Positions 2,955 to 18,580 of a stretch of DNA of 64,000 bases are shown piece by piece. Source of the stretch: Cyathus striatus (lineage: Eukaryota > Basidiomycota > Agaricomycetes > Agaricales > Nidulariaceae); contig JAOVFP010000003.1 of the NCBI GenBank assembly GCA_025738555.1, forward strand, positions 992,001-1,056,000, written 5' to 3'. The translations under genes and the position numbers were made by a program. How positions within the stretch are numbered: the first letter of the stretch is position 1; every line of letters begins with the position of its first letter. A model generated the notes under the pieces. That model was not told where the DNA came from, searched no databases, and was given only the letters and a program-made list of their open reading frames with translations.

Positions 2955-4933
2955 CACTGGTTTGTAGTACTTAAGAAAGACAAGTCTTCACTTTGCTTGG
3001 TACATGATCTACAGCCTCTGAATGCTGTTACAATTAAAGATTCTGGTGGTATTCTCAGCCAAAACTCGAACTTTATGGTCTGTTTCATGCTCTCAAAGCA
3101 ACAAAGATTTGGATTATAGGTGTCAAGAATTTAGTTGTTGAAGTTGACATGAAGTCAATTAAAGGTATGCTCAATAATCCTGATATCCAACCCAGAGCTT
3201 CTATCAATCAATGGATTGTGGGTATACTTCTCTTTTCATTCAAACTATGCCATGTTCCTGCTCATGAACACACTCCTGCAGATGGACTTTCTTGTCATCC
3301 TCATGCCCCAGAAGATGAAGATGAGCAAGATGATTTCGATGAATGGCTAGATACAGCCTATGGATACTCTGTTGAGGTTCTCAACTGGAACCATTCTCCC
3401 TGTCCTCACATTTCTCCTGTTTACTCAGTCACATCCCCTTCCACTCCATCAGTACCAACTTCATCTTCTAGATCTATTCACATCCTTTCTACCCATTCTG
3501 TTACCATCCCCCTCACTCCATCTGCCCTTGTCACCTCATTCTTTGGGTCAAATGTACAAATCTCTTGATCTGACAAAGCCATGTTACGAGATAATGAGCT
3601 TACAATCATGGAATCATTTCTCTGTGACCCCTAATGACCTCCCTCTATATCTGACAAAGAATTGAAGGCTTTTACATCACTGTGTTCGAAGTTTTTCTTG
3701 CATGATGGCAAATTATGGTGTTAAGATCCTCATAACAAGCATAAGCTTGTTATCCCCTCAACCAAGTGTCTTGAACTCATATGCATCACACATGACAAAC
3801 TTGGTCACAAAGGAATATTTAAAATTCGCACTCATCTCCTGGATCAATTCTGGTGGCCATACCTTGACCACAATGTAAAATGGTACATTAAAATGTGCCA
3901 TGAGTGTCAAATCCAGTCTCTGTACAAGAACCACATCCCCCCTGTTGTTGCAACACCTGCAAATCTCTTCCGCAAGTGTTACATTGACACTACATTTATG
4001 ACTTCATGTTCGAATGGCTTCAAAGGTTTAGTACATGCCTGGTGTTCAGTTTCCAGATACCCCGAGTGGTGTATGCTGCATTCTGAAAATGCACAGACAG
4101 TTGCTGCATTTATTTTCGAAGAAATTCTCTGCCACTGGGGCACCATTGAAGAGATCATTACTGACAATGGCACCACATTCTTAGCTGCAATGAATATTTT
4201 GCAAGATAAGTACCAAATACATTGGATACACATCTCACTGTATAACAAGCAAGCTAATGGTCTCGTTGAGAGACAATACTTTGACATTTGTCAAGCCCTT
4301 CTCAAAGCTGCAGAAGGTAACCTTTCAAAGTGGACAACAGTCACACACTCAGTAATTTGGGCTGAATGTGTTTCTATTCAATGTTCTACTGGATATTCCC
4401 CCTATTTCACTGCTTATGGTCTCGAACCATTGTTTCTGTTTGATATCACAGAAGCTACTTACCTATCACCTTGTCTTGAACACCCTATATCTACTGAAGA
4501 TCTTATTGCCTACTGTGCTATTCAACTTCAGAAGTGTCCTACTGACCTTGCACACATCAAGGAATGTGTCCTCAAAGCTAGATATGGCTCAGTTCGACAT
4601 TTCGAAGAAATCTTTGCTCACTCAATGACCAACTTCAATTTTAAAGCCAGTTCTCTTGTCCTTGTTCAAAATTTACACTTAGACTCAGATATTGGACACA
4701 AAATGAAGCCATGATATCTTGGTCCCATGATTGTGCTATGTCATACTCAAGATGGTTCTTATATTCTAGGTGAACTCGATGGCACACTTTCAAAGCTTCG
4801 ATATGCAGCATATTGCATTGTTCTCTATCATCCATGCAACCCCTGCTTCATTTCCATCACCAGTCTCAATGATATCCCTCCTGACAAGCTAGAGGATCTC
4901 ACACATGACAGGGAAGGTGATGTGGATGCATAA
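2955..4933 (+). pseudogene. pol: Ty3/gypsy pol remnant: RT scrap, RNase H, integrase
   Basis: Starts in the RT fingers (HWFVVLKKDKSS, LVHDLQPLNAVTIKDSG), then jumps near 3050 to RNase H. About 890 bp present in the young element's pol (from about 11230 to 12118) are missing, including the catalytic RT motif. RNase H continues as MKSIKGMLNNPDIQP (3149 on). Integrase runs 3893-4714 with MCHEC zinc cysteines, the three acidic residues in order (CYIDTTFM, IITDNG, GLVERQ) and a chromodomain-like tail to 4933. D-to-D spacing is about 59 residues, the usual size, unlike the shortened young copy. Several frame breaks. Many arginines of the young copy are Cys, His or Gln here, suggesting CpG decay. 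Confidence 0.85.
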
Positions 4934-5092
4934 TTATAGCTTTCTTCTTTCATTGTCACTCTTTCTATTTATTTCCTTTCCATATCATTTTATTCTCTAC
5001 TATGCTCACTTTTTTCCTAACTGATTTCTAGTTTATTTAAATATTCCTTTCATTTTACTCTATTATTCATTGCTATCATAGATGACATGCTC

Positions 5093-5624
5093 TCATTCGA
5101 GCCTCATTCCTTGCCTCTTCACAAAGAAGTTTATTTCTTTTCTCCTGTGCTGCTCCCATTGCCTCAGACTCATCAAATGCGCCACCATCAAGATCCCGTG
5201 GTCAATTAATGGCAAAGACCCTTTTTTGCCATCAATTTCCCATATGGTCCAGGAACACCTTGCCAAAACAGAATCATCGACCTCTACATCGAAGCCTGCA
5301 AATCCAGGCATCTCTTCTATGTCTATCTTTAGTTCCAACATTGTTATCTGTGCTATATTTCAGTACTACAGCTTGCAGTGCCATATTTACAATACCATGC
5401 ACCAAATATGTCTCCAGGGAAGTAATACTCCTGAAGATCTCTTTCCACTTCTCTAATTCTTCAGTTTCTTGGCCCTCTTCTGCATCAACGACCTTCTCTA
5501 TAATTTCGATGCAATGACTGGAGAGCTCAATGATCTTTTGACTCCATTGGGACAACATTTGCCCATGGCTAATAACCTTTTCCAAGTCGTCACCCCACAC
5601 ATTCAACAACTGATTGAGGTTCAT
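5093..5624 (-). CDS. antisense two-exon gene downstream of the older pol (unknown protein)
   Basis: Exons 5624-5391 and 5347-5093 are separated by a 43-nt intron (GTAAAT...CACAG) that keeps frame. Together they give a predicted 162-aa protein starting MNLNQLLNVW and ending VKRQGMRLE. It is rich in charged and helix-forming residues (EEGQETEELEKWKEIF) with no motif I recognise. An open stretch upstream (about 5745-5650, reading ISETDLGRCIEES) could be an extra 5' exon. It lies opposite in strand to pol and in the place where the young element also has an antisense gene, but the two proteins show no similarity by eye. That it is open inside a decayed element is notable. It may be chance or a captured host gene. 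Confidence 0.4.
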
Positions 5625-7175: not shown

Positions 7176-8067
7176 TGTAGGGAACCCTACTGGCCTATGT
7201 ACAAAAACACCTAATATACATAGTCCATTAGTTCCTGTACTCATCCTAACCAATTATAAATTATCCTATTTACCACACCCTGATCTCGAGACACTAACAA
7301 TGTTCCACACCCTCGATTACTCCGAAGATCATTACAAATTTTGATGAAGTCCGCAATATTACTAATCAATCAATCATTACCCAGCAAGCGCTAAAGTTAA
7401 CGCGCTGAGTAGTATCTTAAAACCGACGCGCCAAAGTAAACACCGTACCGAAAGGCACGTGACTTAGCGCTGACCAATCACAACGCCCGGCAAAGCGCTC
7501 GCATCAATATTACTTTATCCGATGCCGCCGCGCGCCCTTTATACATATTCCTTCCCTCTTTTCTTTACTCCTCTACTTTTTATCTTTATTCCTTTACTAC
7601 AAATCATTCTTACCTACTGTATTATTAATCATGGTACATATTTCTACCTAGGTAGTTCCAAAAAGTATATAAACCCCTCTCATGTAGCTACATCCCTCAG
7701 TCAATTCCAGTTTGATTCACACTCACCATTCATCTGTTATTCACACTAAGCTTCTAGCTGTAGAAACTTAGTGCACTCCTGTCCTCATCTGCTTAATACT
7801 CAGTACTGCCCAGTTTTATTATTAGTTAAAGCTCTTGCACAGGCAAGAACCTTAGCTAACTTCGCATTTTCTACACTTAATTCACCAAACACACCTTCAC
7901 CACTTCTCTTAAATTCCTATACAAGTCTTAATAACTTTATAAGACTTGTATTCTACCTCAACACTTCGCAACAAACCCGACAACTCGTTTAGAACACTAG
8001 TGACAGATTGGACACTGTCACGCTCAGTACTTAATTGTACAACCTTCAGACAAGTCTTCACCTTACA
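7176..8067 (+). repeat. 5' LTR, 892 bp
   Basis: Begins TGTAGGGAACCC and ends CCTTACA. It is matched base for base, except two sites, by 15481-16372. Contains a TATATAAA box and a pyrimidine-rich stretch after it. The short ORF inside (7522-7749) is not considered coding. Confidence 0.93.
7666..7673 (+). promoter_or_regulatory. TATA box of the LTR promoter
   Basis: TATATAAA in the 5' LTR, repeated at 15971 in the 3' LTR. It lies about 530 bp before the gag start, so the transcript would start inside the LTR as in other LTR elements. Confidence 0.6.
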
Positions 8068-8088: not shown

Positions 8089-8194
8089 GCTTCTAAATTC
8101 AGTTGTCTCCTCGCTTTCGACTCAACAACCAATTCGAAGACATTAATAATCAACCTCATTTAATACATAGCAAGCAATTCGAAATACTTTCGCC

Positions 8195-10441
8195 ATGTCT
8201 CAACATAACGTTGACCCATCACAAATCCAACTCCCCCGTTCACCTGTACACGATTTCGTTCCATATCCACTAGGTTATGCGCCTCAAAAATGTGCCAATA
8301 ACAATCCGGCACCACAAGTAGCCTCACGCATTCCTATACCCTCTCCACAACCGAGTTCTAAACCCCCTACCTTGCACCCTGCAGACTGGACTATGAATTC
8401 AGCACTGCTAGGAGATCAGCAAAGCATCAGAAACAGTAATGCATACCGACAACGTGGAATGCCATCCCCAGGCGACAGAGGCGCACCCAAATTTGATGGG
8501 AAACCTTTGTCACTTCAACGGTTTTTCCGGAATGTAGAACGGCATGCTATTCTCTGCGAACTCGATGAAACTGAAGCGATCGAGTGGACTTATTCATATG
8601 TGTCCCAAGAAGAAGAGGATACCTGGCGCGAGAAGGCAGACGGCGTAATCCACTGGGAAGAATTCAAAGAACTAATCTCAGAATTATATCCCGGTGCAGA
8701 CGGCGACAAGAAATACTTGATCGCAGACCTTGAAGCATTAATTGCACAACAATCTACAAAGCCTATTTCCGGAAGATATCAGCTGGGTGAATACAATAGA
8801 AAATTCTATTGTATCTCCTCTTACCTGAAGCGCCGTGAAAAACTGACTGCTCGAGAAATCAGTATCTACTTCATGAATGGATTCACGCCTGAATTCCGAA
8901 AAGAAATTCAAGACCAACTCCGTATTCAGGAACCCAAGCATGATCCTGAAGATCCATGGGACTACGAAGAAATATATAAGGCTGCAATCATCCTCCTACC
9001 ACCAAACAACGGAGGACTTACTCTGGAAAACAATATGCGAAACCAAAGAAATCCGTTCCAGCCCAAAAAGACGTACAATGCAACGGCTATGGAGAAACTG
9101 TATAATGATCAGCCCCCAGCTGAAACTTATACTAACAACTGGAAAAGTGGACCAAATACCTCATATACCGCGCCATTGCCAATAAATGATCGGCCTCCAC
9201 GTCGAACCTTCCGATGCTTTTTCTGCTCGGACACGAATCATATCATTTCCTTATGTCCAGTATTAAACGAATATGTACAAAAGGGTCTGTGCAAGACAGG
9301 CGATAAAGGGCAAATCTTAATGCCAGACGGACGCCTAGTCAACAACCAAGTAGCTTTAGGACCAGATCATAAGACGCGCATTGATAACTGGTATAAAGTC
9401 AACAAGCGTCCAGAGGTAGCCTCAACCAACGTTATTGAAGCTACTCAAATTCACAGCTATAGCCAGAATGTCCCTACAGAAAAAGCAGGAGCATTCATAG
9501 AAGAAGTAGTGGATCAGGAACCACCTGTAACGCAGGAAGAAATAGACCGCCTTCCGGTACTTGAGACCCTCATGAATAACGCAAAGCGCGAACTGGAGTC
9601 CATCCAGAAGAAGATGAAGGAGAATGCCAATAACCGTAAACCGGATGGTCCAGTAACCCGCAGCAAGGCTAGGAATGAAGTACAAGTCCCCAGTACAGTC
9701 CCAGCAGAAAGCCCAAGCTTTACGAGTAACAGGGAACCTCAGTACAAGTATCAAGCACCAGTGGAATCACTGGAACTTACTAAACGCGTACTAAGAAAAG
9801 GGCTTGATAGTACAGTTACCTTGACATGCGAAGAACTCTTCGCCATAGCCCCAGAATATCGGCGCCAGATGAAAGACCTAATTTCAAGCCGTAAAGTCAC
9901 CACATTTGGTCCAGAAAACAATTCAGCTACGCAGAACGCACTGACAGTGGCGGACATCGAAGTTTTACAACAAAAAGTACTTGACGACGGAAAAATAGTG
10001 GCCAATTGTAAAGAAGACCTGCGACAGATTCCTGTCAAATTAAACAAATCGGTACCTGTCAACGCAATAATCGACAGCGGCTCGCAAATTATAGGCATAC
10101 GAAAAGAAATCTGGGAAAAGCTTGGACTGCCTTTGCGTTCAGACTATGTAATGGAAACAGAAGCTGCCAATGCTTCACGCGGACGCACCCTTGGAATGCT
10201 CACCAACTTAACAGTGTCAATTGGAGACGTAGACTTTTATGTTCAAGCCCAAGTCGTCCCAGAAGCATCATACGATATGCTCCTAGGCCTTCCATTCCTA
10301 ACGTTAACACAAGGAAGCATCCACCATTTTACTACAGGCGATGTGCACCTGGTACTTCAAGACCCAAATACTCACGCAGTTATCACGGTACCAACCCAAG
10401 CACGGCGCCGTAACCACCACATTGCCTCTCAGGATTTTTAG
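8195..10441 (+). CDS. gag: Gag-protease polyprotein of the Ty3/gypsy element (748 aa)
   Basis: Predicted 748-aa Gag with a protease at the C end. The first ATG after the PBS leader (8195) is used. The first 90 residues are proline-rich, followed by a capsid-like helical region (GAPKFDGKPLSLQRFFRNVE; DTWREKADG). A CCHC knuckle lies at residues 341-354 (CFFCSDTNHIISLC). The retropepsin-like domain has active-site DSG at about residue 627 (NAIIDSGSQ) and the later YDMLLGLPFL motif. Gag forms particles and the protease cuts the polyprotein. The frame ends in ATTTTTAG. The pol frame, one base back, is open through this point, so Pol may be made by a -1 shift. No stop or frame break is seen. Confidence 0.93.
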   Translation: MSQHNVDPSQIQLPRSPVHDFVPYPLGYAPQKCANNNPAPQVASRIPIPSPQPSSKPPTLHPADWTMNSALLGDQQSIRNSNAYRQRGMPSPGDRGAPKFDGKPLSLQRFFRNVERHAILCELDETEAIEWTYSYVSQEEEDTWREKADGVIHWEEFKELISELYPGADGDKKYLIADLEALIAQQSTKPISGRYQLGEYNRKFYCISSYLKRREKLTAREISIYFMNGFTPEFRKEIQDQLRIQEPKHDPEDPWDYEEIYKAAIILLPPNNGGLTLENNMRNQRNPFQPKKTYNATAMEKLYNDQPPAETYTNNWKSGPNTSYTAPLPINDRPPRRTFRCFFCSDTNHIISLCPVLNEYVQKGLCKTGDKGQILMPDGRLVNNQVALGPDHKTRIDNWYKVNKRPEVASTNVIEATQIHSYSQNVPTEKAGAFIEEVVDQEPPVTQEEIDRLPVLETLMNNAKRELESIQKKMKENANNRKPDGPVTRSKARNEVQVPSTVPAESPSFTSNREPQYKYQAPVESLELTKRVLRKGLDSTVTLTCEELFAIAPEYRRQMKDLISSRKVTTFGPENNSATQNALTVADIEVLQQKVLDDGKIVANCKEDLRQIPVKLNKSVPVNAIIDSGSQIIGIRKEIWEKLGLPLRSDYVMETEAANASRGRTLGMLTNLTVSIGDVDFYVQAQVVPEASYDMLLGLPFLTLTQGSIHHFTTGDVHLVLQDPNTHAVITVPTQARRRNHHIASQDF
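10434..10441 (+). promoter_or_regulatory. candidate -1 ribosomal frameshift site at the gag stop
   Basis: The gag frame reads ...GAT TTT TAG with five T in a row. A slip of one base back in the T run reads TTT TTA GGC and enters the pol frame, which has no stop from here to 13963. This is inferred from sequence only. A downstream pseudoknot was not modelled. Confidence 0.45.
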
Positions 10442-10569
10442 GCATCGATGATTCGGGAAATACCCGAGGAGATACCTCAGCATGTTCAGTTCTTAACTGT
10501 GAAACAAATAAAAGTGTTAACGACTCACTTATTCTCTTTTCCAACCCAAAACTCCAACAAAACTGCTTC

Positions 10570-13500
10570 ATGACATCACCTATTTGCTTCTCATCTACTA
10601 CTTTCTCTCCACCTGCTAAAACTCTCGAGTCTTTTGAAATCTCTCTATACAATCTAGAACACATCGTCTGTTCAAATGTGTTATCAGAAGTATTCGCGTA
10701 CAAAAAGGTAGCGGATAGAATTAAACCTGTTGCTACCACCCTACCTGAAAATTTTCGAATTGTTCGACGCATCCCTTCAGACCCTTTGGCGGAAATGCCA
10801 AAGCTCCCTACTCATCCCCCAGATTTCGTCCCAGGAAAAAGATATACTCTAGAAAGAAAGGAAGAAAATAATGTTAATAAAGACAATTTTCTCTGGCCAG
10901 AAGAAGAGAAACTTGTCCACGAGCTCATCCGGCTCCAGGAATATGCTTTTGCCTGGAACGAAGACGAAAAAGGAAAATTTTCGAATGAATACTTCGACCC
11001 AGTAACCATACCAACAATAGAACATATACCTTGGGTCTTACGAAACATTCCAATTCCCCAAGGCATATTCAATCAAGTGGTCCAAATAATAAAAGATAAA
11101 ATAGCGGCCGGAGTGTATGAACCCTCAAACGCATCGTATCGGTCCCGTTGGTTTTGTGTACTAAAGAAAGACGGAAAGTCCCTGCGATTAGTACACGACC
11201 TTCAGCCCCTAAACGCTGTTGCTATTAAAGACAGTGGCGTACCACCAATCGTTGAAACCTATGCTGAATCATTCGGTGGACGTGCCTGTTATGGCGTCTT
11301 CGATTTATTTGTCGGTTTTGACCAACGTGAATTAGCGGTTGAATCGAGGGATTTAACCACCTTCCAGACACCGTTAGGAACCTTTAGACTTACCTCCATA
11401 CCAATGGGATACACGAATTCCATGCAAATACAACATGGAGACTTGACCTTCCTGTTACAAGACGAGATACCGCACGTAGCGGCACCCTTTGTCGACGATG
11501 TACCTGTGAAAGGGCCAGTCACACGATACGAAAATAAAAACGGAACATACGAAACGATACCTGAGAATCCGGGTATACGGCGATTCGTTTGGGAACATCT
11601 CCAGAACGTTAACCGTATTATCCAACGAATTAAACACGCCGGTGGCACCTTCTCCGCTAAGAAATCACATTTCTGTGTTCCAGAAGCATTAATAGTCGGC
11701 CATAAATGCACATATGACGGACGCTTACCTGACGAAACACGAATTCAAAAAGTATTAGACTGGCCTACATGTCGAAACCTGACAGAAGTCCGCGGTTTCT
11801 TGGGAACCTGCGGAACAGTACGCGTATTCGTCAAAGACTACGCAATACACGCGAAACCACTCGTTGCACTTACCAAGAAAAACAACGAGTTTTTCTTTGG
11901 CCCAGAAGAACAAAAAGCCATGGATACTTTAAAACTGCTAGTAAAGAACTGTCCTGCCATACGCGCCATCGACTATCTCTGTGATAGAGAAGTCATTTTG
12001 GCAGTCGACTCATCTTGGATAGGCGTCGGATATGTTCTACTCCAACTCGGCACGGACAATAAGCGTTATCCATCCCGTTACGGCTCTATCACTTGGAATG
12101 AACGTGAACAACGTTATTCACAAGCTAAACTAGAACTATACGGTCTGTTCCGCGCATTAAAAGATGTTAGAATCTATATAATTGGAGTAAGGAACCTCAC
12201 CATTGAAACCGATGCCAAATACATCAAAGGCATGTTGAATAACCCGGACCTCCAACCTAGCGCCACTATAAACAGGTGGATAGCTGGAATACTGTTATTC
12301 TCGCCATTCAAATTAGTTCACATACCTGGTAAAGACCATGCTGCGGCAGACGGTCTATCACGACGACCACAAGCTCCAGAAGATCCACCCAATGTAGAGG
12401 ATTGGGAACAATGGATCGATGACGCAAATGCCTTTGCAATCGAAGTCTTGAACTGGGAACGTACACCACGCTCCTCTGTATATACACAGACGGGCAAATG
12501 TGTTACAAGCCCAACTCTGGCGTCTCAATCGTACACGTCATCTCACGGTCGTGGGACTCGACCTTCCGAATTAGTACAGACGCTTATGGGCGCCTCTCTA
12601 GAAATCCCGCGCACCGACAAGGCAGAGAAGCGCGACCTTGAACTCTTGCGCATTCAAGCCTTCCTCGAGAACCCTGTCCGGCCTCCAGATATGTCCGATA
12701 CTCAGTATACGAAGTTCATTCGTCGCTGTCTCCAATTCTTCACCAAGGACGGCCGACTCTGGAAGAAAGATCCTCATGGCAAACACAAGTTAGTCATTCC
12801 ACCACCCAAGCGTCTTGGACTTATCATGGAAGCTCATGACGAGCTAGGACACAAGGGGATCTTTACAGTACGTATTCGACTTCTCGAGCGTTTCTGGTGG
12901 CCACATTTGGAAGACGATGTCAAATGGTACATCAAGACCTGTCATGAATGTCAAGTCCGTCTTCTTCATCGACTTCATATTCCCCCATCTGTTCCTACCC
13001 CCTTCTCTCTGTTCCGTAAAGTCAACATTGACACTATGCTCATGCCCAAGTCTAACGGCTACCGATATATTGTACACGCTGAGAACACTCGCACTCTTGC
13101 TGCCTTTATATTCGAAGAAATACTTTGCCGATGGGGTGCTATTGAAGAAATTGTCTCCGACAACGCCCCTCAGTTCATCGAAGCTTGCCAGTACTTAGCC
13201 GAAAAGTACCATATTCACCATATTCGCATCTCCCCTTACAACTTGCAAGCTAACGGCGCAATCGAACGTCGACACTTTGATGTACGTGAAGCCCTTATCA
13301 AAGCAGCAGATGGAAATGAAAACCGTTGGACACAAGTTGCACCCTCCGTTATCTGGGCAGAACGAGTGAGTATCCAAAAATCTACTGGATACTCACCTTA
13401 CTATATAGCACACGGCGTCGAACCCGTTATGCCATTCGACCTGGCTGAAGCCACCTACTTGGCTCCTAAACTCGATCATCTAGTGTCTACTCAAGAACTT

Positions 13501-13965
13501 ATCACATACCGAGCCAAGCAACTTCAAAAGCGACCGGCTGACCTGGAGAAAATAAAAGAACGCGTACTTAAAGCTCGTTACGAGTCGATTCGTCAATTTG
13601 AGAAAGACATGGCTCATAAGATCCATGACTATGACTTCAAGCCCGGATCCCTAGTTCTTGTCCGAAATTCACGATACGAGCACGACATCACACGGTTCAA
13701 AACTAGACCGCGTTATCTTGGACCAATGGTCGTTCTTAAACGGACCACAGGCGGCTCGTATATCTTAGCGGAACTCGACGGCTCAGTCTCTCGTCTTCGA
13801 TTTGCCGCATTCCGTCTAATACCCTACCACCCACGCGATCCTACCAATATACCTGTTACACAATTGCCGTCTATTTCTGATGAAGAAATAGAAAATACTA
13901 CTATCCCTGATAATGACGATCCTCCTTCTCTCCAAAACATCGTATCTATAACCAACTCATACTAA
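10570..13965 (+). CDS. pol: Pol: reverse transcriptase, RNase H, integrase (1131 aa)
   Basis: Copies element RNA into DNA and inserts it. RT covers about residues 170-400, with LVHDLQPLNA and catalytic FVDD (307-310, a variant of YxDD). RNase H has D480, E522, D548 and D594 (AVDSSW, KLELYG, ETDAKY, AADGLSRRP). Integrase has an HHCC zinc finger (H756, C791, C794) and acidic triad D821, D864, E899. Spacing is D-43-D-35-E. The second gap is normal, but the first is about 16 shorter than in the older copy, which has extra residues around SRYPEW. A chromodomain-like C-terminal part follows. The first ATG in frame is 10570, but the frame is open back into gag, favouring a Gag-Pol fusion. No stop interrupts it. 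Confidence 0.93.
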   Translation: MTSPICFSSTTFSPPAKTLESFEISLYNLEHIVCSNVLSEVFAYKKVADRIKPVATTLPENFRIVRRIPSDPLAEMPKLPTHPPDFVPGKRYTLERKEENNVNKDNFLWPEEEKLVHELIRLQEYAFAWNEDEKGKFSNEYFDPVTIPTIEHIPWVLRNIPIPQGIFNQVVQIIKDKIAAGVYEPSNASYRSRWFCVLKKDGKSLRLVHDLQPLNAVAIKDSGVPPIVETYAESFGGRACYGVFDLFVGFDQRELAVESRDLTTFQTPLGTFRLTSIPMGYTNSMQIQHGDLTFLLQDEIPHVAAPFVDDVPVKGPVTRYENKNGTYETIPENPGIRRFVWEHLQNVNRIIQRIKHAGGTFSAKKSHFCVPEALIVGHKCTYDGRLPDETRIQKVLDWPTCRNLTEVRGFLGTCGTVRVFVKDYAIHAKPLVALTKKNNEFFFGPEEQKAMDTLKLLVKNCPAIRAIDYLCDREVILAVDSSWIGVGYVLLQLGTDNKRYPSRYGSITWNEREQRYSQAKLELYGLFRALKDVRIYIIGVRNLTIETDAKYIKGMLNNPDLQPSATINRWIAGILLFSPFKLVHIPGKDHAAADGLSRRPQAPEDPPNVEDWEQWIDDANAFAIEVLNWERTPRSSVYTQTGKCVTSPTLASQSYTSSHGRGTRPSELVQTLMGASLEIPRTDKAEKRDLELLRIQAFLENPVRPPDMSDTQYTKFIRRCLQFFTKDGRLWKKDPHGKHKLVIPPPKRLGLIMEAHDELGHKGIFTVRIRLLERFWWPHLEDDVKWYIKTCHECQVRLLHRLHIPPSVPTPFSLFRKVNIDTMLMPKSNGYRYIVHAENTRTLAAFIFEEILCRWGAIEEIVSDNAPQFIEACQYLAEKYHIHHIRISPYNLQANGAIERRHFDVREALIKAADGNENRWTQVAPSVIWAERVSIQKSTGYSPYYIAHGVEPVMPFDLAEATYLAPKLDHLVSTQELITYRAKQLQKRPADLEKIKERVLKARYESIRQFEKDMAHKIHDYDFKPGSLVLVRNSRYEHDITRFKTRPRYLGPMVVLKRTTGGSYILAELDGSVSRLRFAAFRLIPYHPRDPTNIPVTQLPSISDEEIENTTIPDNDDPPSLQNIVSITNSY

Positions 13966-14633
13966 CACCATTACACTCGTGTTGTGAATAGCATTTTAAT
14001 TTCACCAGAAATTTTTTTTCGGCTTCCTCTTCTCGGCTTCTCAACAGAGCGCACGGTGCGCACGATATCTATACTTTACACAATTCGCACACACGGTGTG
14101 TGCGACGGTTTATTACCATTTCCGTTATCCGAATACAGTGTATGAACAACTGATTTACATACACTATGTGCACGAGTGCACAATCTGTTCCGTTACTCTA
14201 TAACCAAGCATACGTGCACGAGTGCACTACTTATCACACAAGACATTCTACACCAGCAATTTTATTCAAATACAAGACCACACAACAGACAATGACTACG
14301 TAGTCCAGACATCGCGATATAAATACACATTACAATTACTTCTACCTACCTTTCCCCTTCCCATTCCCCCTTCTCATGTAAACCTTACAAATGCTTCCGT
14401 TTTACTGCTACCTGCACACGCGCTCCATCGGACTAAATTGAAACAAGAAATTAACACACTCTTTCCTCCATCCATCGTACCACTCACGGAAGCCGACGAA
14501 TCACTTACAGACATTAACCCTGGTACATCACTCGACGAGTCATTCTCCTCATCCACAGTATCAGGTGCTTGAACACCCACCGACGGCTGCCCCTGTGCGG
14601 TGGAAGGGACTCTGTACGGCACTGTCAGCATGC
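13966..14633 (+). other. post-pol spacer of the Ty3 element with short palindromes
   Basis: Contains repeated short palindromic words such as CACACGGTGTGTG and GTGCACGAGTGCAC (about 14050-14230). A serine-rich minus-strand frame at 14631-14374 starts directly after the stop of the antisense gene and could be a further exon or a frameshifted tail. I could not join it in frame. Confidence 0.5.
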
Positions 14634-15427
14634 CTACTCGATGACGGTTATGAAACCTACGTACCCTCCAGCTACTGGAAGTGCAAACAGCGCAGTATTA
14701 AAACCATCAGTAAATCTAGCAAGTCCGACGCGTGCCCCTGGAGTCGGCGGCAGTGTTGATCCAACAACTATATCATTAGGCACGGAACGCAACCGCCTCA
14801 TCATGTTCTGAACATGACGAATACTCGAAACGAGTGCTATGTCGTTAATATTGATAGCCCAGTGTGCCTGCTGTGTCTCGCTAAGCAGATGGGACGCGGC
14901 AGTGAGGCAGTCTTTAACAAATCCCCTTTCCCCAGCAAATGGTGCATTTACATATACTGCCCCAAGCACCTCATATATATCTCCCCAGTCTATTTCGGGG
15001 ATAAAACGATCACGAAACAATAGCTCATGACAGATCAGGGCAGTCGATTTCTAAATTAACGACGCATTAATAACCAAGAAAAAGATGCCATAACTACTGG
15101 TCACTGTACCATGAGGCTTGCGTAAAACGCCAAAGATATCACCCCATCAGCATCAACCGACTCTTGCTGATGGTTTCGTGCAGCATGAACCAAGTCTTGC
15201 ACTATCTGAACGTACCCAGTCGTATTAAACCGTGCTCGGACAACAGGATTAATATCAAGAATAGGCCCTAGTTGGAACGGCATGTTGAAAGAAGAAAATG
15301 TATCGATAAATTTTCGAGCCGGCCTTCCATCATCCCTTATATATATCATATATGACACTACATCATTTCGATCTCGATGACCTATTTGCTCCGACGTGAC
15401 ACAAATTATTTCATCGACACCAATGTC
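14634..15427 (-). CDS. antisense spliced gene between pol and 3' LTR (unknown protein)
   Basis: Minus strand. Exon A is open from 15427 to 15110 (TSEQIGHRDRNDVVSY, IYIRDDGRPARKFIDTF). A 59-nt intron follows (15109-15051, GTACAG...ATTTAG) and joins in phase to exon B, 15050-14634 (STALICHELLFRDRF, GDIYEVLGAVYVNAP), ending in TAG. About 244 residues are open. The first ATG in exon A is at 15349, but coding-like sequence before it suggests a 5' exon near or inside the 3' LTR. The protein looks globular with mixed helices; I do not recognise the family. Extra ORFs, some antisense, between pol and 3' LTR are known in certain plant Ty3 lineages (Ogre/Tat). Here an intron on the minus strand supports real antisense transcription. 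It could be captured host sequence. Confidence 0.55.
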
Positions 15428-15460
15428 TTATCATGATATTGACTTAAGTAACAGTCAATA

Positions 15461-15480
15461 TCACAAAAGTCCCCGGGTGG
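15461..15480 (+). other. presumed plus-strand priming site before the 3' LTR
   Basis: Sequence TCACAAAAGTCCCCGGGTGG directly before the 3' LTR. It is a poor polypurine tract, so the call rests on position only. Confidence 0.3.
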
Positions 15481-16372
15481 TGTAGGGAACCCTACTGGCC
15501 TATGTACAAAAACACCTAATATACATAGTCCATTAGTTCCTGTACTCATCCTAACCAATTATAAATTATCCTATTTACCACACCCTGATCTCGAGACACT
15601 AACAATGTTCCACACCCTCGATTACTCCGAAGATCATTACAAATTTTGATGAAGTCCGCAATATTACTAATCAATCAATCATTACCCAGCAAGCGCTAAA
15701 GTTAACGTGCTGAGTAGTATCTTAAAACCGACGCGCCAAAGTAAACACCGTACCGAAAGGCACGTGACTTAGCGCTGACCAATCACAACGCCCGGCAAAG
15801 CGCTCGCATCAATATTACTTTATCCGATGCCGCCGCGCGCCCTTTATACATATTCCTTCCCTCTTTTCTTTATTCCTCTACTTTTTATCTTTATTCCTTT
15901 ACTACAAATCATTCTTACCTACTGTATTATTAATCATGGTACATATTTCTACCTAGGTAGTTCCAAAAAGTATATAAACCCCTCTCATGTAGCTACATCC
16001 CTCAGTCAATTCCAGTTTGATTCACACTCACCATTCATCTGTTATTCACACTAAGCTTCTAGCTGTAGAAACTTAGTGCACTCCTGTCCTCATCTGCTTA
16101 ATACTCAGTACTGCCCAGTTTTATTATTAGTTAAAGCTCTTGCACAGGCAAGAACCTTAGCTAACTTCGCATTTTCTACACTTAATTCACCAAACACACC
16201 TTCACCACTTCTCTTAAATTCCTATACAAGTCTTAATAACTTTATAAGACTTGTATTCTACCTCAACACTTCGCAACAAACCCGACAACTCGTTTAGAAC
16301 ACTAGTGACAGATTGGACACTGTCACGCTCAGTACTTAATTGTACAACCTTCAGACAAGTCTTCACCTTACA
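15481..16372 (+). repeat. 3' LTR, 892 bp
   Basis: Same length and ends as the 5' LTR, with two C-to-T type differences (one at a CpG). Carries the same TATATAAA (15971). Followed by the ACAC duplication at 16373-16376. Confidence 0.93.
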
Positions 16373-16376
16373 ACAC

Positions 16377-17614: not shown

Positions 17615-18580
17615 GTGGCTTTCATTTTGATTGATCCTTGTCGGTGAGCACTGAGGGTGTGCGATGTTTCGCACCGGGGATCAATTGATTTCAAAATACA
17701 CTGTAATGGAATCAATAATTACTATGTAGAATTTTGAAATCAATCAATTGTAGTTAATAGATTGATCAATGAATGAACAAAATCAATGGTAAATCAGTAC
17801 TATATACTAGAAAGTGCGAAATCAATGGGAGAATGGAATCATTGCAGTAGCAAAATCAGTGAAAAGTGAAATCAATTAGAAATGAAATAAATCATTGTAA
17901 TATTATGGTCCCCAACCGCGAGTGTAACACATCAGCAGGGTTTTTAACTATGTAAACATAGCCACTACACTACTAGGCCTTTTAAAACTGTTACGCTTCT
18001 CAGTACCCAACTAATACTTGCTATTGCTTCTGGGGACTTGGTGAAAATTGGCAATCTTTGGATTACTTTTAATATATCTTTATATACACATTGTGCCACC
18101 ACTACAGTGCGACGTTCATTGCATTATAACTCATAGCTTGATGTATTTTATGTCATATTTTACGAATTATCTAGTAAAATATTAAGTATAAATGATAGCG
18201 AGCTACTAGTTAAGTAGCATGACGTGCAACACTTAAAAAAGACCTAATAGTGTAGCGGCTATGCTTATATAGTTAAAAACCTTGCTGATGCGTTACACTC
18301 GCGGTTGGGGACCATAATATTACAATGATTTATTTCATTTCTAATTGATTTCATTTTTCATTGATTTTGCTACCGCAATGATTCCATTCTCCCATTGATT
18401 TCACACTTTCTACCATTGATTTCGTTCGTTCATTGATCAATCTATTAACTACAATTGATTGATTTCAAAATTCTAATTATTGATTCCATTACAGCGTATT
18501 TTGAAATCAATCGATCCCCGGTGCGAAACATCGCGCACCCTCGGTGCTTACCGACAGGGATCAATCAAAAAGAAAGCCAC
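17615..18580. mobile_element. foldback element with about 370-bp terminal inverted repeats, non-coding
   Basis: The left arm 17615 to about 17995 starts GTGGCTTTC. The right arm, about 18215-18580, ends GAAAGCCAC. The two arms are near-perfect reverse complements along their length, including GTTTCGCACCGGGGATC and GGTCCCCAACCGCGAGTGTA. A unique spacer of about 220 bp separates them. Inside the arms, words like GAAATCAATG recur every 10-25 bp. No ORF and no clear flanking duplication were found, so the superfamily is unassigned. Confidence 0.85.

What the first reader, a model, noticed from the sequence alone, without database searches (positions are those of the whole stretch)
14634..15427. 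Spliced antisense gene nested between pol and 3' LTR of a young Ty3/gypsy element
Two minus-strand exons join in phase across a 59-nt GT-AG intron and give about 244 open residues on the strand opposite to gag-pol. An intron on that strand cannot be a by-product of sense coding. If transcribed, the element carries a gene read towards pol, possibly from a promoter in the 3' LTR. Antisense extra ORFs are known in plant Ogre/Tat elements. A spliced one in a fungal Ty3 element would be new to me. The protein family is unrecognised.
Basis: partly seen in the sequence, partly recalled or inferred. Interest (0 to 1): 0.78.

Follow-up and report, generated by a model that had tools for sequence, protein, structure and literature searches.

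The report
Spliced antisense gene in fungal retrotransposon
A family of fungal jumping genes carries, back to front behind its own replication genes, a four-exon protein gene that evolution has kept intact, and a relative of that gene also sits alone in the host genome.

Summary
The 59-nt intron (15109-15051) is exact. The start is 15283, not 15427, and two more exons follow: 15283-15110, 15050-14665, 14611-14488, 14432-14385; 243 aa, intron phases 0/2/0. A diverged element on contig C9 (about 50% aa identity) and four of five modelled group-B elements share all three phases. Start and first two junctions recur in a deposited Cyathus striatus protein. Among four group-B copies dN/dS is 0.067-0.095, and every sense frame of their exon 2 holds stops. 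21 of 22 pol loci at about 50% identity or more have the antisense exon beside them. A stand-alone homologue, with no credible pol match or repeat in the 5.4 kb read, shares intron 1 and joins groups A and B. No Pfam, PDB or fold match above cut-offs.

Best reading: a small helical accessory protein regulating its element in trans. Coding is near certain; transcription and function are inferred. Antisense genes at this place are known in plant Grande/Retand and in Botrytis Boty (brtn), so this is a new variant of a known kind; the conserved introns, lineage-wide retention and stand-alone homologue are the new parts.

The parts
7176..8067 (+). 5' LTR (892 bp, TG..CA)
   Evidence: 2 mismatches to the 3' LTR; flank ACAC at 7172-7175 matches ACAC at 16373-16376
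8171..10441 (+). gag-protease frame (stop to stop)
   Evidence: Pfam gag-asp_proteas E 6.7e-10
10414..13965 (+). RT-RNaseH-integrase frame, 1183 aa
   Evidence: Integrase_H2C2, RT_RNaseH; RVT_1 below cut-off; no chromodomain match
15110..15283 (-). antisense gene exon 1 (start MPFQLG)
   Evidence: same start in C9 and in P0001
15051..15109 (-). intron 1, 59 nt, GT-AG, phase 0
   Evidence: position and phase conserved in C9, L051, L052, L054, L055, L056 and L071; junction in P0001
14665..15050 (-). exon 2 (helical domain, TLPPTPG motif)
   Evidence: open in C3, C11, C1 and C9 copies
14612..14664 (-). intron 2, 53 nt, GTACGT..TACAG, phase 2
   Evidence: P0001 carries the same junction (VAGG|VTSTAQG)
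14488..14611 (-). exon 3 (acidic, SVSDSS motif)
14433..14487 (-). intron 3, 55 nt, GTGAGT..TTTAG, phase 0 (least certain; the deposited P0001 uses another third intron)
14385..14432 (-). exon 4, basic C-terminus VAVKRKHL (KRKRM in C9)
15337..15345 (-). TATA-like motif about 62 nt upstream of the start
   Evidence: kept in C11 and C1, ATATAA in C9; motif match only, no chance control
14261..14266 (-). AATAAA about 118 nt after the stop codon
   Evidence: motif match only; C9 has TATAAA instead
15481..16372 (+). 3' LTR

Best explanation
The element carries a true third gene on the antisense strand between pol and the 3' LTR. It is transcribed towards pol, most likely from its own promoter in the 200 bp inside the 3' LTR, and spliced from four exons into a protein of about 243 aa: an alpha-helical N-terminal domain (about residues 10-121) and a probably disordered acidic/Ser-rich tail ending in a basic KRKHL-type motif. 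The protein most likely acts in trans as an accessory regulator of its element (nuclear control of sense transcription, silencing or copy number), as is supposed for the antisense genes of plant Grande/Retand. Because the gene lies antisense, its introns are not introns in the genomic sense RNA and survive each retrotransposition cycle; this orientation is what lets the element keep an intron-bearing gene. Shown: coding, conserved splice positions, purifying selection, retention across the lineage, a stand-alone homologue. Inferred: transcription, promoter, nuclear site, regulatory role. (Coding alone: about 0.95; regulatory role given coding: about 0.5.)
For: Intron phases 0/2/0 in C3, C9, L051, L052, L054, L055 (6 of 7 models; L056 fits introns 1 and 2 only). 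dN/dS 0.067-0.095 in 6 of 6 pairs of L051/L052/L054/L055 with dS 0.36-0.70; for exon 2 the gene frame is open in all four and each of the three sense frames holds stops in all four. C3 vs C9: pN 0.337, pS 0.752. Exon-2 matches at 24 loci, 21 of 24 with a pol match beside them and all 21 antisense to it. Deposited P0001 agrees with start and junctions 1 and 2 of the window gene; deposited P0002 agrees with junction 1 of L071. Stand-alone L071 matches all five group-B models and all three group-A proteins by BLASTP against those eight sequences (best E per protein 1.5e-13 to 4.5e-8; hhalign E 5.5e-10 and 6.1e-11, 0 of 60 shuffles as high). AF2: helical domain, pLDDT about 65 (P0001); 69.5 mean for P0002. 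TATA-like motifs in 12 of 16 upstream stretches (no chance control).
Against: No RNA data were available, so transcription and splicing are unproven. Intron 3 differs from the deposited P0001 model, and L056 does not fit it. Two close copies (C11, C1) are decaying. The group C pair (L057/L059) shows weaker constraint (dN/dS 0.27, L059 stopping earlier). No domain or fold match hints at function. The basic C-terminal motif is short, and nuclear targeting is a guess. An effect of the antisense RNA itself is not excluded.
Confidence: 0.5

Rival explanations
1. Captured or co-opted host gene: the antisense gene and the stand-alone gene (L071/P0002) are paralogues, one derived from the other. The host copy may be the progenitor that an ancestral element took up in reverse, introns included, or an exapted copy now acting for the host, for example as a restriction factor. 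(This can hold together with the best explanation.)
For: L071 shares the phase-0 intron 1 and has no credible match to the window's gag or pol (best E 0.45) and no repeats in the 5.4 kb read around it; a 96%-identical protein is deposited from Cyathus striatus; it lies near the midpoint between groups A and B on short branches (0.15 inner, 0.01 end, against 3.29 and 2.82), 21-25% identical to both while A and B share 13-16%.
Against: Direction is not settled: the tree is unrooted and its long branches meet. Selection on L071 was not measured. LTRs further than the 5.4 kb read, or a decayed unrelated element, are not excluded.
Confidence: 0.35
2. The protein works in particle assembly or movement (a second structural protein or an env substitute) rather than in regulation.
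For: Strong conservation is what an essential structural part would show; the predicted domain is all-helical.
Against: No match at E<=0.001 in PDB or the viral library (P0002 only), none to Pfam above cut-off; an antisense message would be an odd way to make a stoichiometric particle protein.
Confidence: 0.12
3. The antisense transcript acts as RNA, making double-stranded RNA that dampens the element; the open frame is secondary.
For: A dsRNA silencing role of antisense transcripts is proposed for such elements (PMC7264820 passages).
Against: Amino-acid-level selection (dN/dS about 0.07-0.095) with stops in all sense frames of exon 2 shows that the protein matters.
Confidence: 0.05
4. Chance open frame or by-product of sense coding.
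For: Minus-strand ORFs of about 80-150 codons do occur opposite gag-pol, and the mirror sense frame also shows a low dN/dS (0.07-0.14), though with stops.
Against: The region is not sense-coding: 8, 12 and 17 stops in the three sense frames over the window gene; introns conserved; dN/dS low.
Confidence: 0.02

Closest known systems
Boty element of Botrytis cinerea, antisense gene brtn (Zhao et al. 2011, Virology; paper not held, only seen cited in PMC7264820, PMC8365987, PMC4227169)
   Same: fungal LTR element, extra gene antisense to gag-pol; [quoted passage not shown]
   Different: Boty gag-pol has a chromodomain (PMC4227169 passage) and lies in an ascomycete; no chromodomain was matched here. 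Splicing of brtn and homology to BRTN could not be tested.
Plant Grande gene23 / RIRE2 / Retand antisense ORFs (aORF-3R)
   Same: antisense, between pol and 3' LTR, kept in most copies, unknown function; gene23 product nuclear and transcribed from an upstream promoter (PMC7264820 passages)
   Different: 97% of Retand clusters encode the TRP28 domain (PMC11963269 abstract; PF04195); no such match here. Here three conserved introns and a stand-alone homologue.
HTLV-1 HBZ
   Same: antisense gene of an LTR element, product nuclear (PMC11963269 passage); its being spliced is recalled
   Different: HBZ is a bZIP protein (recalled); HTLV has its antisense promoter inside the 3' LTR (PMC7264820 passage). 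No bZIP match here; the promoter here is unknown, with motif evidence only for a place outside the LTR
Bdelloid rotifer LTR element ORF3 genes (PMC5408684, passages)
   Same: extra non-envelope genes in LTR elements
   Different: different proteins and hosts; spliced antisense genes are not mentioned in the passages seen

Membership tests
antisense accessory genes (aORF-3R) of LTR elements | gene between pol and 3' LTR, antisense to gag-pol | tested here: met
   21 of 21 exon-2 loci with a pol match beside them are antisense
antisense accessory genes (aORF-3R) of LTR elements | present in most copies of the lineage, conserved like other element proteins | tested here: met
   21 of 22 pol loci at about 50% identity or more's capped list; dN/dS 0.067-0.095 in four group-B copies. 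A direct comparison with pol dN/dS failed (1 of 6 pairs usable, dS saturated)
antisense accessory genes (aORF-3R) of LTR elements | own promoter upstream of the gene | tested here: inconclusive
   TATA-like motifs in 12 of 16 upstream stretches, no chance control; no transcript data
plant Retand antisense genes | TRP28 domain (PF04195) | tested here: not met
   no such match at E<=1
Boty/brtn | chromodomain-bearing gag-pol | tested here: not met
   Pfam scan of the 1183-aa frame; a diverged chromodomain could be missed
Boty/brtn | protein homologous to BRTN | not tested
HBZ-like | bZIP domain | tested here: not met
HBZ-like | transcript starts in the 3' LTR | not testable with these tools
   needs 5' end mapping
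env-like gene | sense orientation downstream of pol | tested here: not met
   gene is antisense

The most novel reading that the evidence does not exclude
A multi-intron host gene was taken up in reverse by an ancestral fungal Ty3 element, kept its introns because antisense introns cannot be spliced from the genomic RNA, and has been retained across the lineage as a trans-acting regulator, while a slowly evolving stand-alone copy remains in the host. Element and host would then hold matched copies of one small helical protein: a ready system for studying control of an element by its own gene and by the host's relative of it.
Probability: 0.3. Interest if true: 0.78.

Novelty: new variant of a known kind. 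Interest (0 to 1): 0.62.

Why it matters
The functions of antisense genes of LTR elements are unknown (PMC7264820, PMC11963269), and in fungi brtn is the only one I found cited, in ten answered searches of open-licence papers. Here one such gene has a defined start, conserved introns, strong purifying selection and a stand-alone homologue in the same genome, so its function can be asked directly. It also shows how an element that passes through RNA can hold an intron-bearing gene, and suggests that repeat masking and sense-only annotation hide such genes.

Tried and rejected
A further ORF starting in the 3' LTR (MSTGTNGLC...): seen by eye; its ATG is absent in C9; not counted as part of the gene. 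A three-exon model of 265 aa was replaced by the four-exon model because exon 4 (SDGARVQV / PDGRHFRV) and the basic end (C3/C9) match. The first intron-2 guess was out of phase and dropped. Structure searches gave no hit at E<=0.001: P0001 in PDB, P0002 in PDB and in the viral library. Pfam gave only sub-threshold matches for the antisense proteins; the PDB sequence search nothing credible (best E 2.1). Protein search with exon 2 alone gave none; with A1 one; with A2 two, one of them already found. Homology of groups A/B to groups C/D: suggestive only. The joint A+B+L071 profile against C, D and D2 gives E 0.011, 0.019 and 0.0022, each above 30 of 30 shuffles; against the exon-1 profile D1 it is at chance (16 of 30 shuffles as high); L071 alone against C, D, D1, D2 gives E 0.27, 0.25, 0.097, 0.49. 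Left open. Group E (L041-L048, L050): another antisense frame, copies too alike for dN/dS; not claimed. pol dN/dS for comparison: only 1 of 6 pairs had an open frame in my cut, and its dS was saturated.

Full report
What is there. The window holds a young Ty3-type element: LTRs 7176-8067 and 15481-16372 (892 bp, 2 mismatches, ACAC on both flanks), gag-protease frame 8171-10441 and RT-RNaseH-integrase frame 10414-13965.

Gene model. The same genome (107 Mb, 24 contigs) holds three more copies of the stretch: C11 and C1 (94% and 90% DNA identity) and C9 (67% over 273 nt that include exon 1). Exon 2 is open in all four, at 100, 91, 85 and 48% amino-acid identity. Comparing C3 (the window) with the C9 element fixes the model: shared start MPF.LG at 15283; intron 1 15109-15051; intron 2 14664-14612; intron 3 14487-14433; stop codon ending at 14385; 243 aa. 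The deposited Cyathus striatus protein P0001 (244 aa, 87% identity over 84% of the query) has the same start and the same first two junctions, and a different third one. The host of the window is therefore probably a Cyathus or near relative (inference).

Is it coding? Six further elements with 70-73% identical C-terminal pol (L051-L056) carry a collinear antisense gene. I modelled five of the six (L051, L052, L054, L055, L056); L053 has a 13-base gap in exon 2 and a stop and was left out, as was a seventh, interrupted group-B locus (L063). Phases are 0/2/0 in four of the five; in L056 introns 1 and 2 fit and intron 3 does not. In all 6 pairs of L051, L052, L054, L055 dN/dS is 0.067-0.095 at dS 0.36-0.70. 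For exon 2 the gene frame has no stop in any of the four and each of the three sense frames has stops in all four; dN/dS of the gene frame is 0.044-0.087; the mirror sense frame also reads low (0.07-0.14), as mirroring of third positions predicts, but it is not open. C3 vs C9 is saturated at silent sites (pN 0.337, pS 0.752). Against: the C11 and C1 copies decay, with 26 of 46 and 46 of 93 substitutions being C>T or G>A at CpG sites of C3; and the group C pair L057/L059 is under weaker constraint (dN/dS 0.27).

How widespread? Exon-2 searches with one query each from groups A, B, C and D gave 24 distinct loci; 17 of 24 have no stop in the matched stretch of their best query. 21 of 24 have a pol match within 1 kb, and in 21 of 21 the gene is antisense to it; three (C10:2510174, C7:1992059, C1:7819172) have none's list, which scored only 124 of 618 candidates; the last of them lies within 1 kb of an LTR match. 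In the other direction, 22 pol loci have about 50% identity or more (fragments of one element counted once, by hand); 21 of 22 have the antisense exon and one broken locus (C5:973-979 kb) does not. The 19 of these among the 30 loci used for a tree lie on one side of a branch with support 100/100. The pol matches at 46% identity or less had no exon match beside them in these four searches. Groups C and D are homologous to each other (hhalign probability 96-97%); their tie to A and B is only suggestive.

The stand-alone copy. L071 (C10:2509300-2511300) encodes a homologue with intron 1 at the same place and phase, without credible match to the window's gag or pol (best E 0.45) or repeats in 5.4 kb. 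It ties A and B together: BLASTP against the eight proteins 1.5e-13 to 4.5e-8, hhalign E 5.5e-10 and 6.1e-11, 0 of 60 shuffles as high in each case; A against B alone reaches E 2.7e-4 at only 42% probability, 0 of 60 column shuffles as high. A protein 96% identical over the query is deposited from Cyathus striatus (P0002). In an unrooted tree the stand-alone pair sits near the midpoint on short branches, which fits a slow host gene close to the ancestor but does not prove direction; long branches meet in that tree.

What the protein may be. No Pfam match at the cut-off, no PDB sequence relative (best E 2.1), no fold match at E<=0.001. AlphaFold on four-row alignments gives an all-helical domain (P0001 residues about 10-121, pLDDT about 65, mean of the whole model 48; P0002 mean 69.5, pTM 0.68); both models are of modest confidence. 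The tail is acidic and Ser-rich with SDSS and ends KRKHL or KRKRM in C3 and C9. TATA-like motifs are marked in 12 of 16 stretches upstream of the start, without a chance control; AATAAA lies 118 nt after the stop in C3 but not in C9.

How it works. Shown: coding, splice-site conservation, selection, retention. Inferred: an antisense mRNA with its own promoter; the protein regulates its element in trans. The antisense position also explains why introns persist: they are not introns in the sense RNA that is copied (established knowledge of splicing).

What is known. [quoted passage not shown] Retand: 97% of clusters encode TRP28 antisense, suggested regulators (PMC11963269 abstract and passages). 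brtn is mentioned in PMC8365987, PMC4227169 and PMC5987419 (passages); the original paper was not seen. A survey of fungal LTR elements (PMC3248453) has no 'antisense' in its text (one search count; passages); PMC2864245 mentions an additional ORF of unknown function, orientation not given in the passages seen, in fungal Gypsy elements.

Noticed in passing
window 4073-5624: A second, older related element (pol 55% identical) just upstream, with its own antisense exons at about 5624-5403 and 5359-5093 (stops in part of its exon-2 match); the window's young element begins at 7176.
   Followed up: partly
L071 (G000:C10:2509300-2511300): Stand-alone homologue of the antisense gene with no credible pol match or repeats in 5.4 kb; 96% identical protein deposited from Cyathus striatus.
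   Followed up: yes
L041-L048, L050 (and L067-L069, which overlap three of them): A distant Ty3 lineage (pol about 38%) also shows a shared antisense frame downstream of pol (EMLLEYAEVF...): 12 of 16 entries, which are 9 distinct loci, one of them partial; not in L040, L049, L066, L070. Copies too alike to test selection.
   Followed up: partly
L017, L018: Close copies on C11 and C1 decay largely at CpG sites (26 of 46 and 46 of 93 substitutions), as expected from cytosine methylation.
   Followed up: partly
window 15431-15481: A block of about 50 bp next to the 3' LTR, holding an inverted repeat (ATATTGAC...GTCAATAT), is 82-86% identical in six diverged elements, beside the expected plus-strand primer site.
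   Followed up: no
window 14150-14240: Two copies of the near-palindrome GTGCACGAGTGCAC between the convergent pol and antisense genes, also seen twice in the C9 element.
   Followed up: no
window 17717-18485: Long inverted repeats (75- and 209-nt arms, 92% and 89% complementary), perhaps a small DNA element or fold-back unit.
   Followed up: no
window 10414-10441: gag and pol stop-to-stop frames overlap by 28 nt, with pol in the -1 frame relative to gag (coordinates).
   Followed up: no
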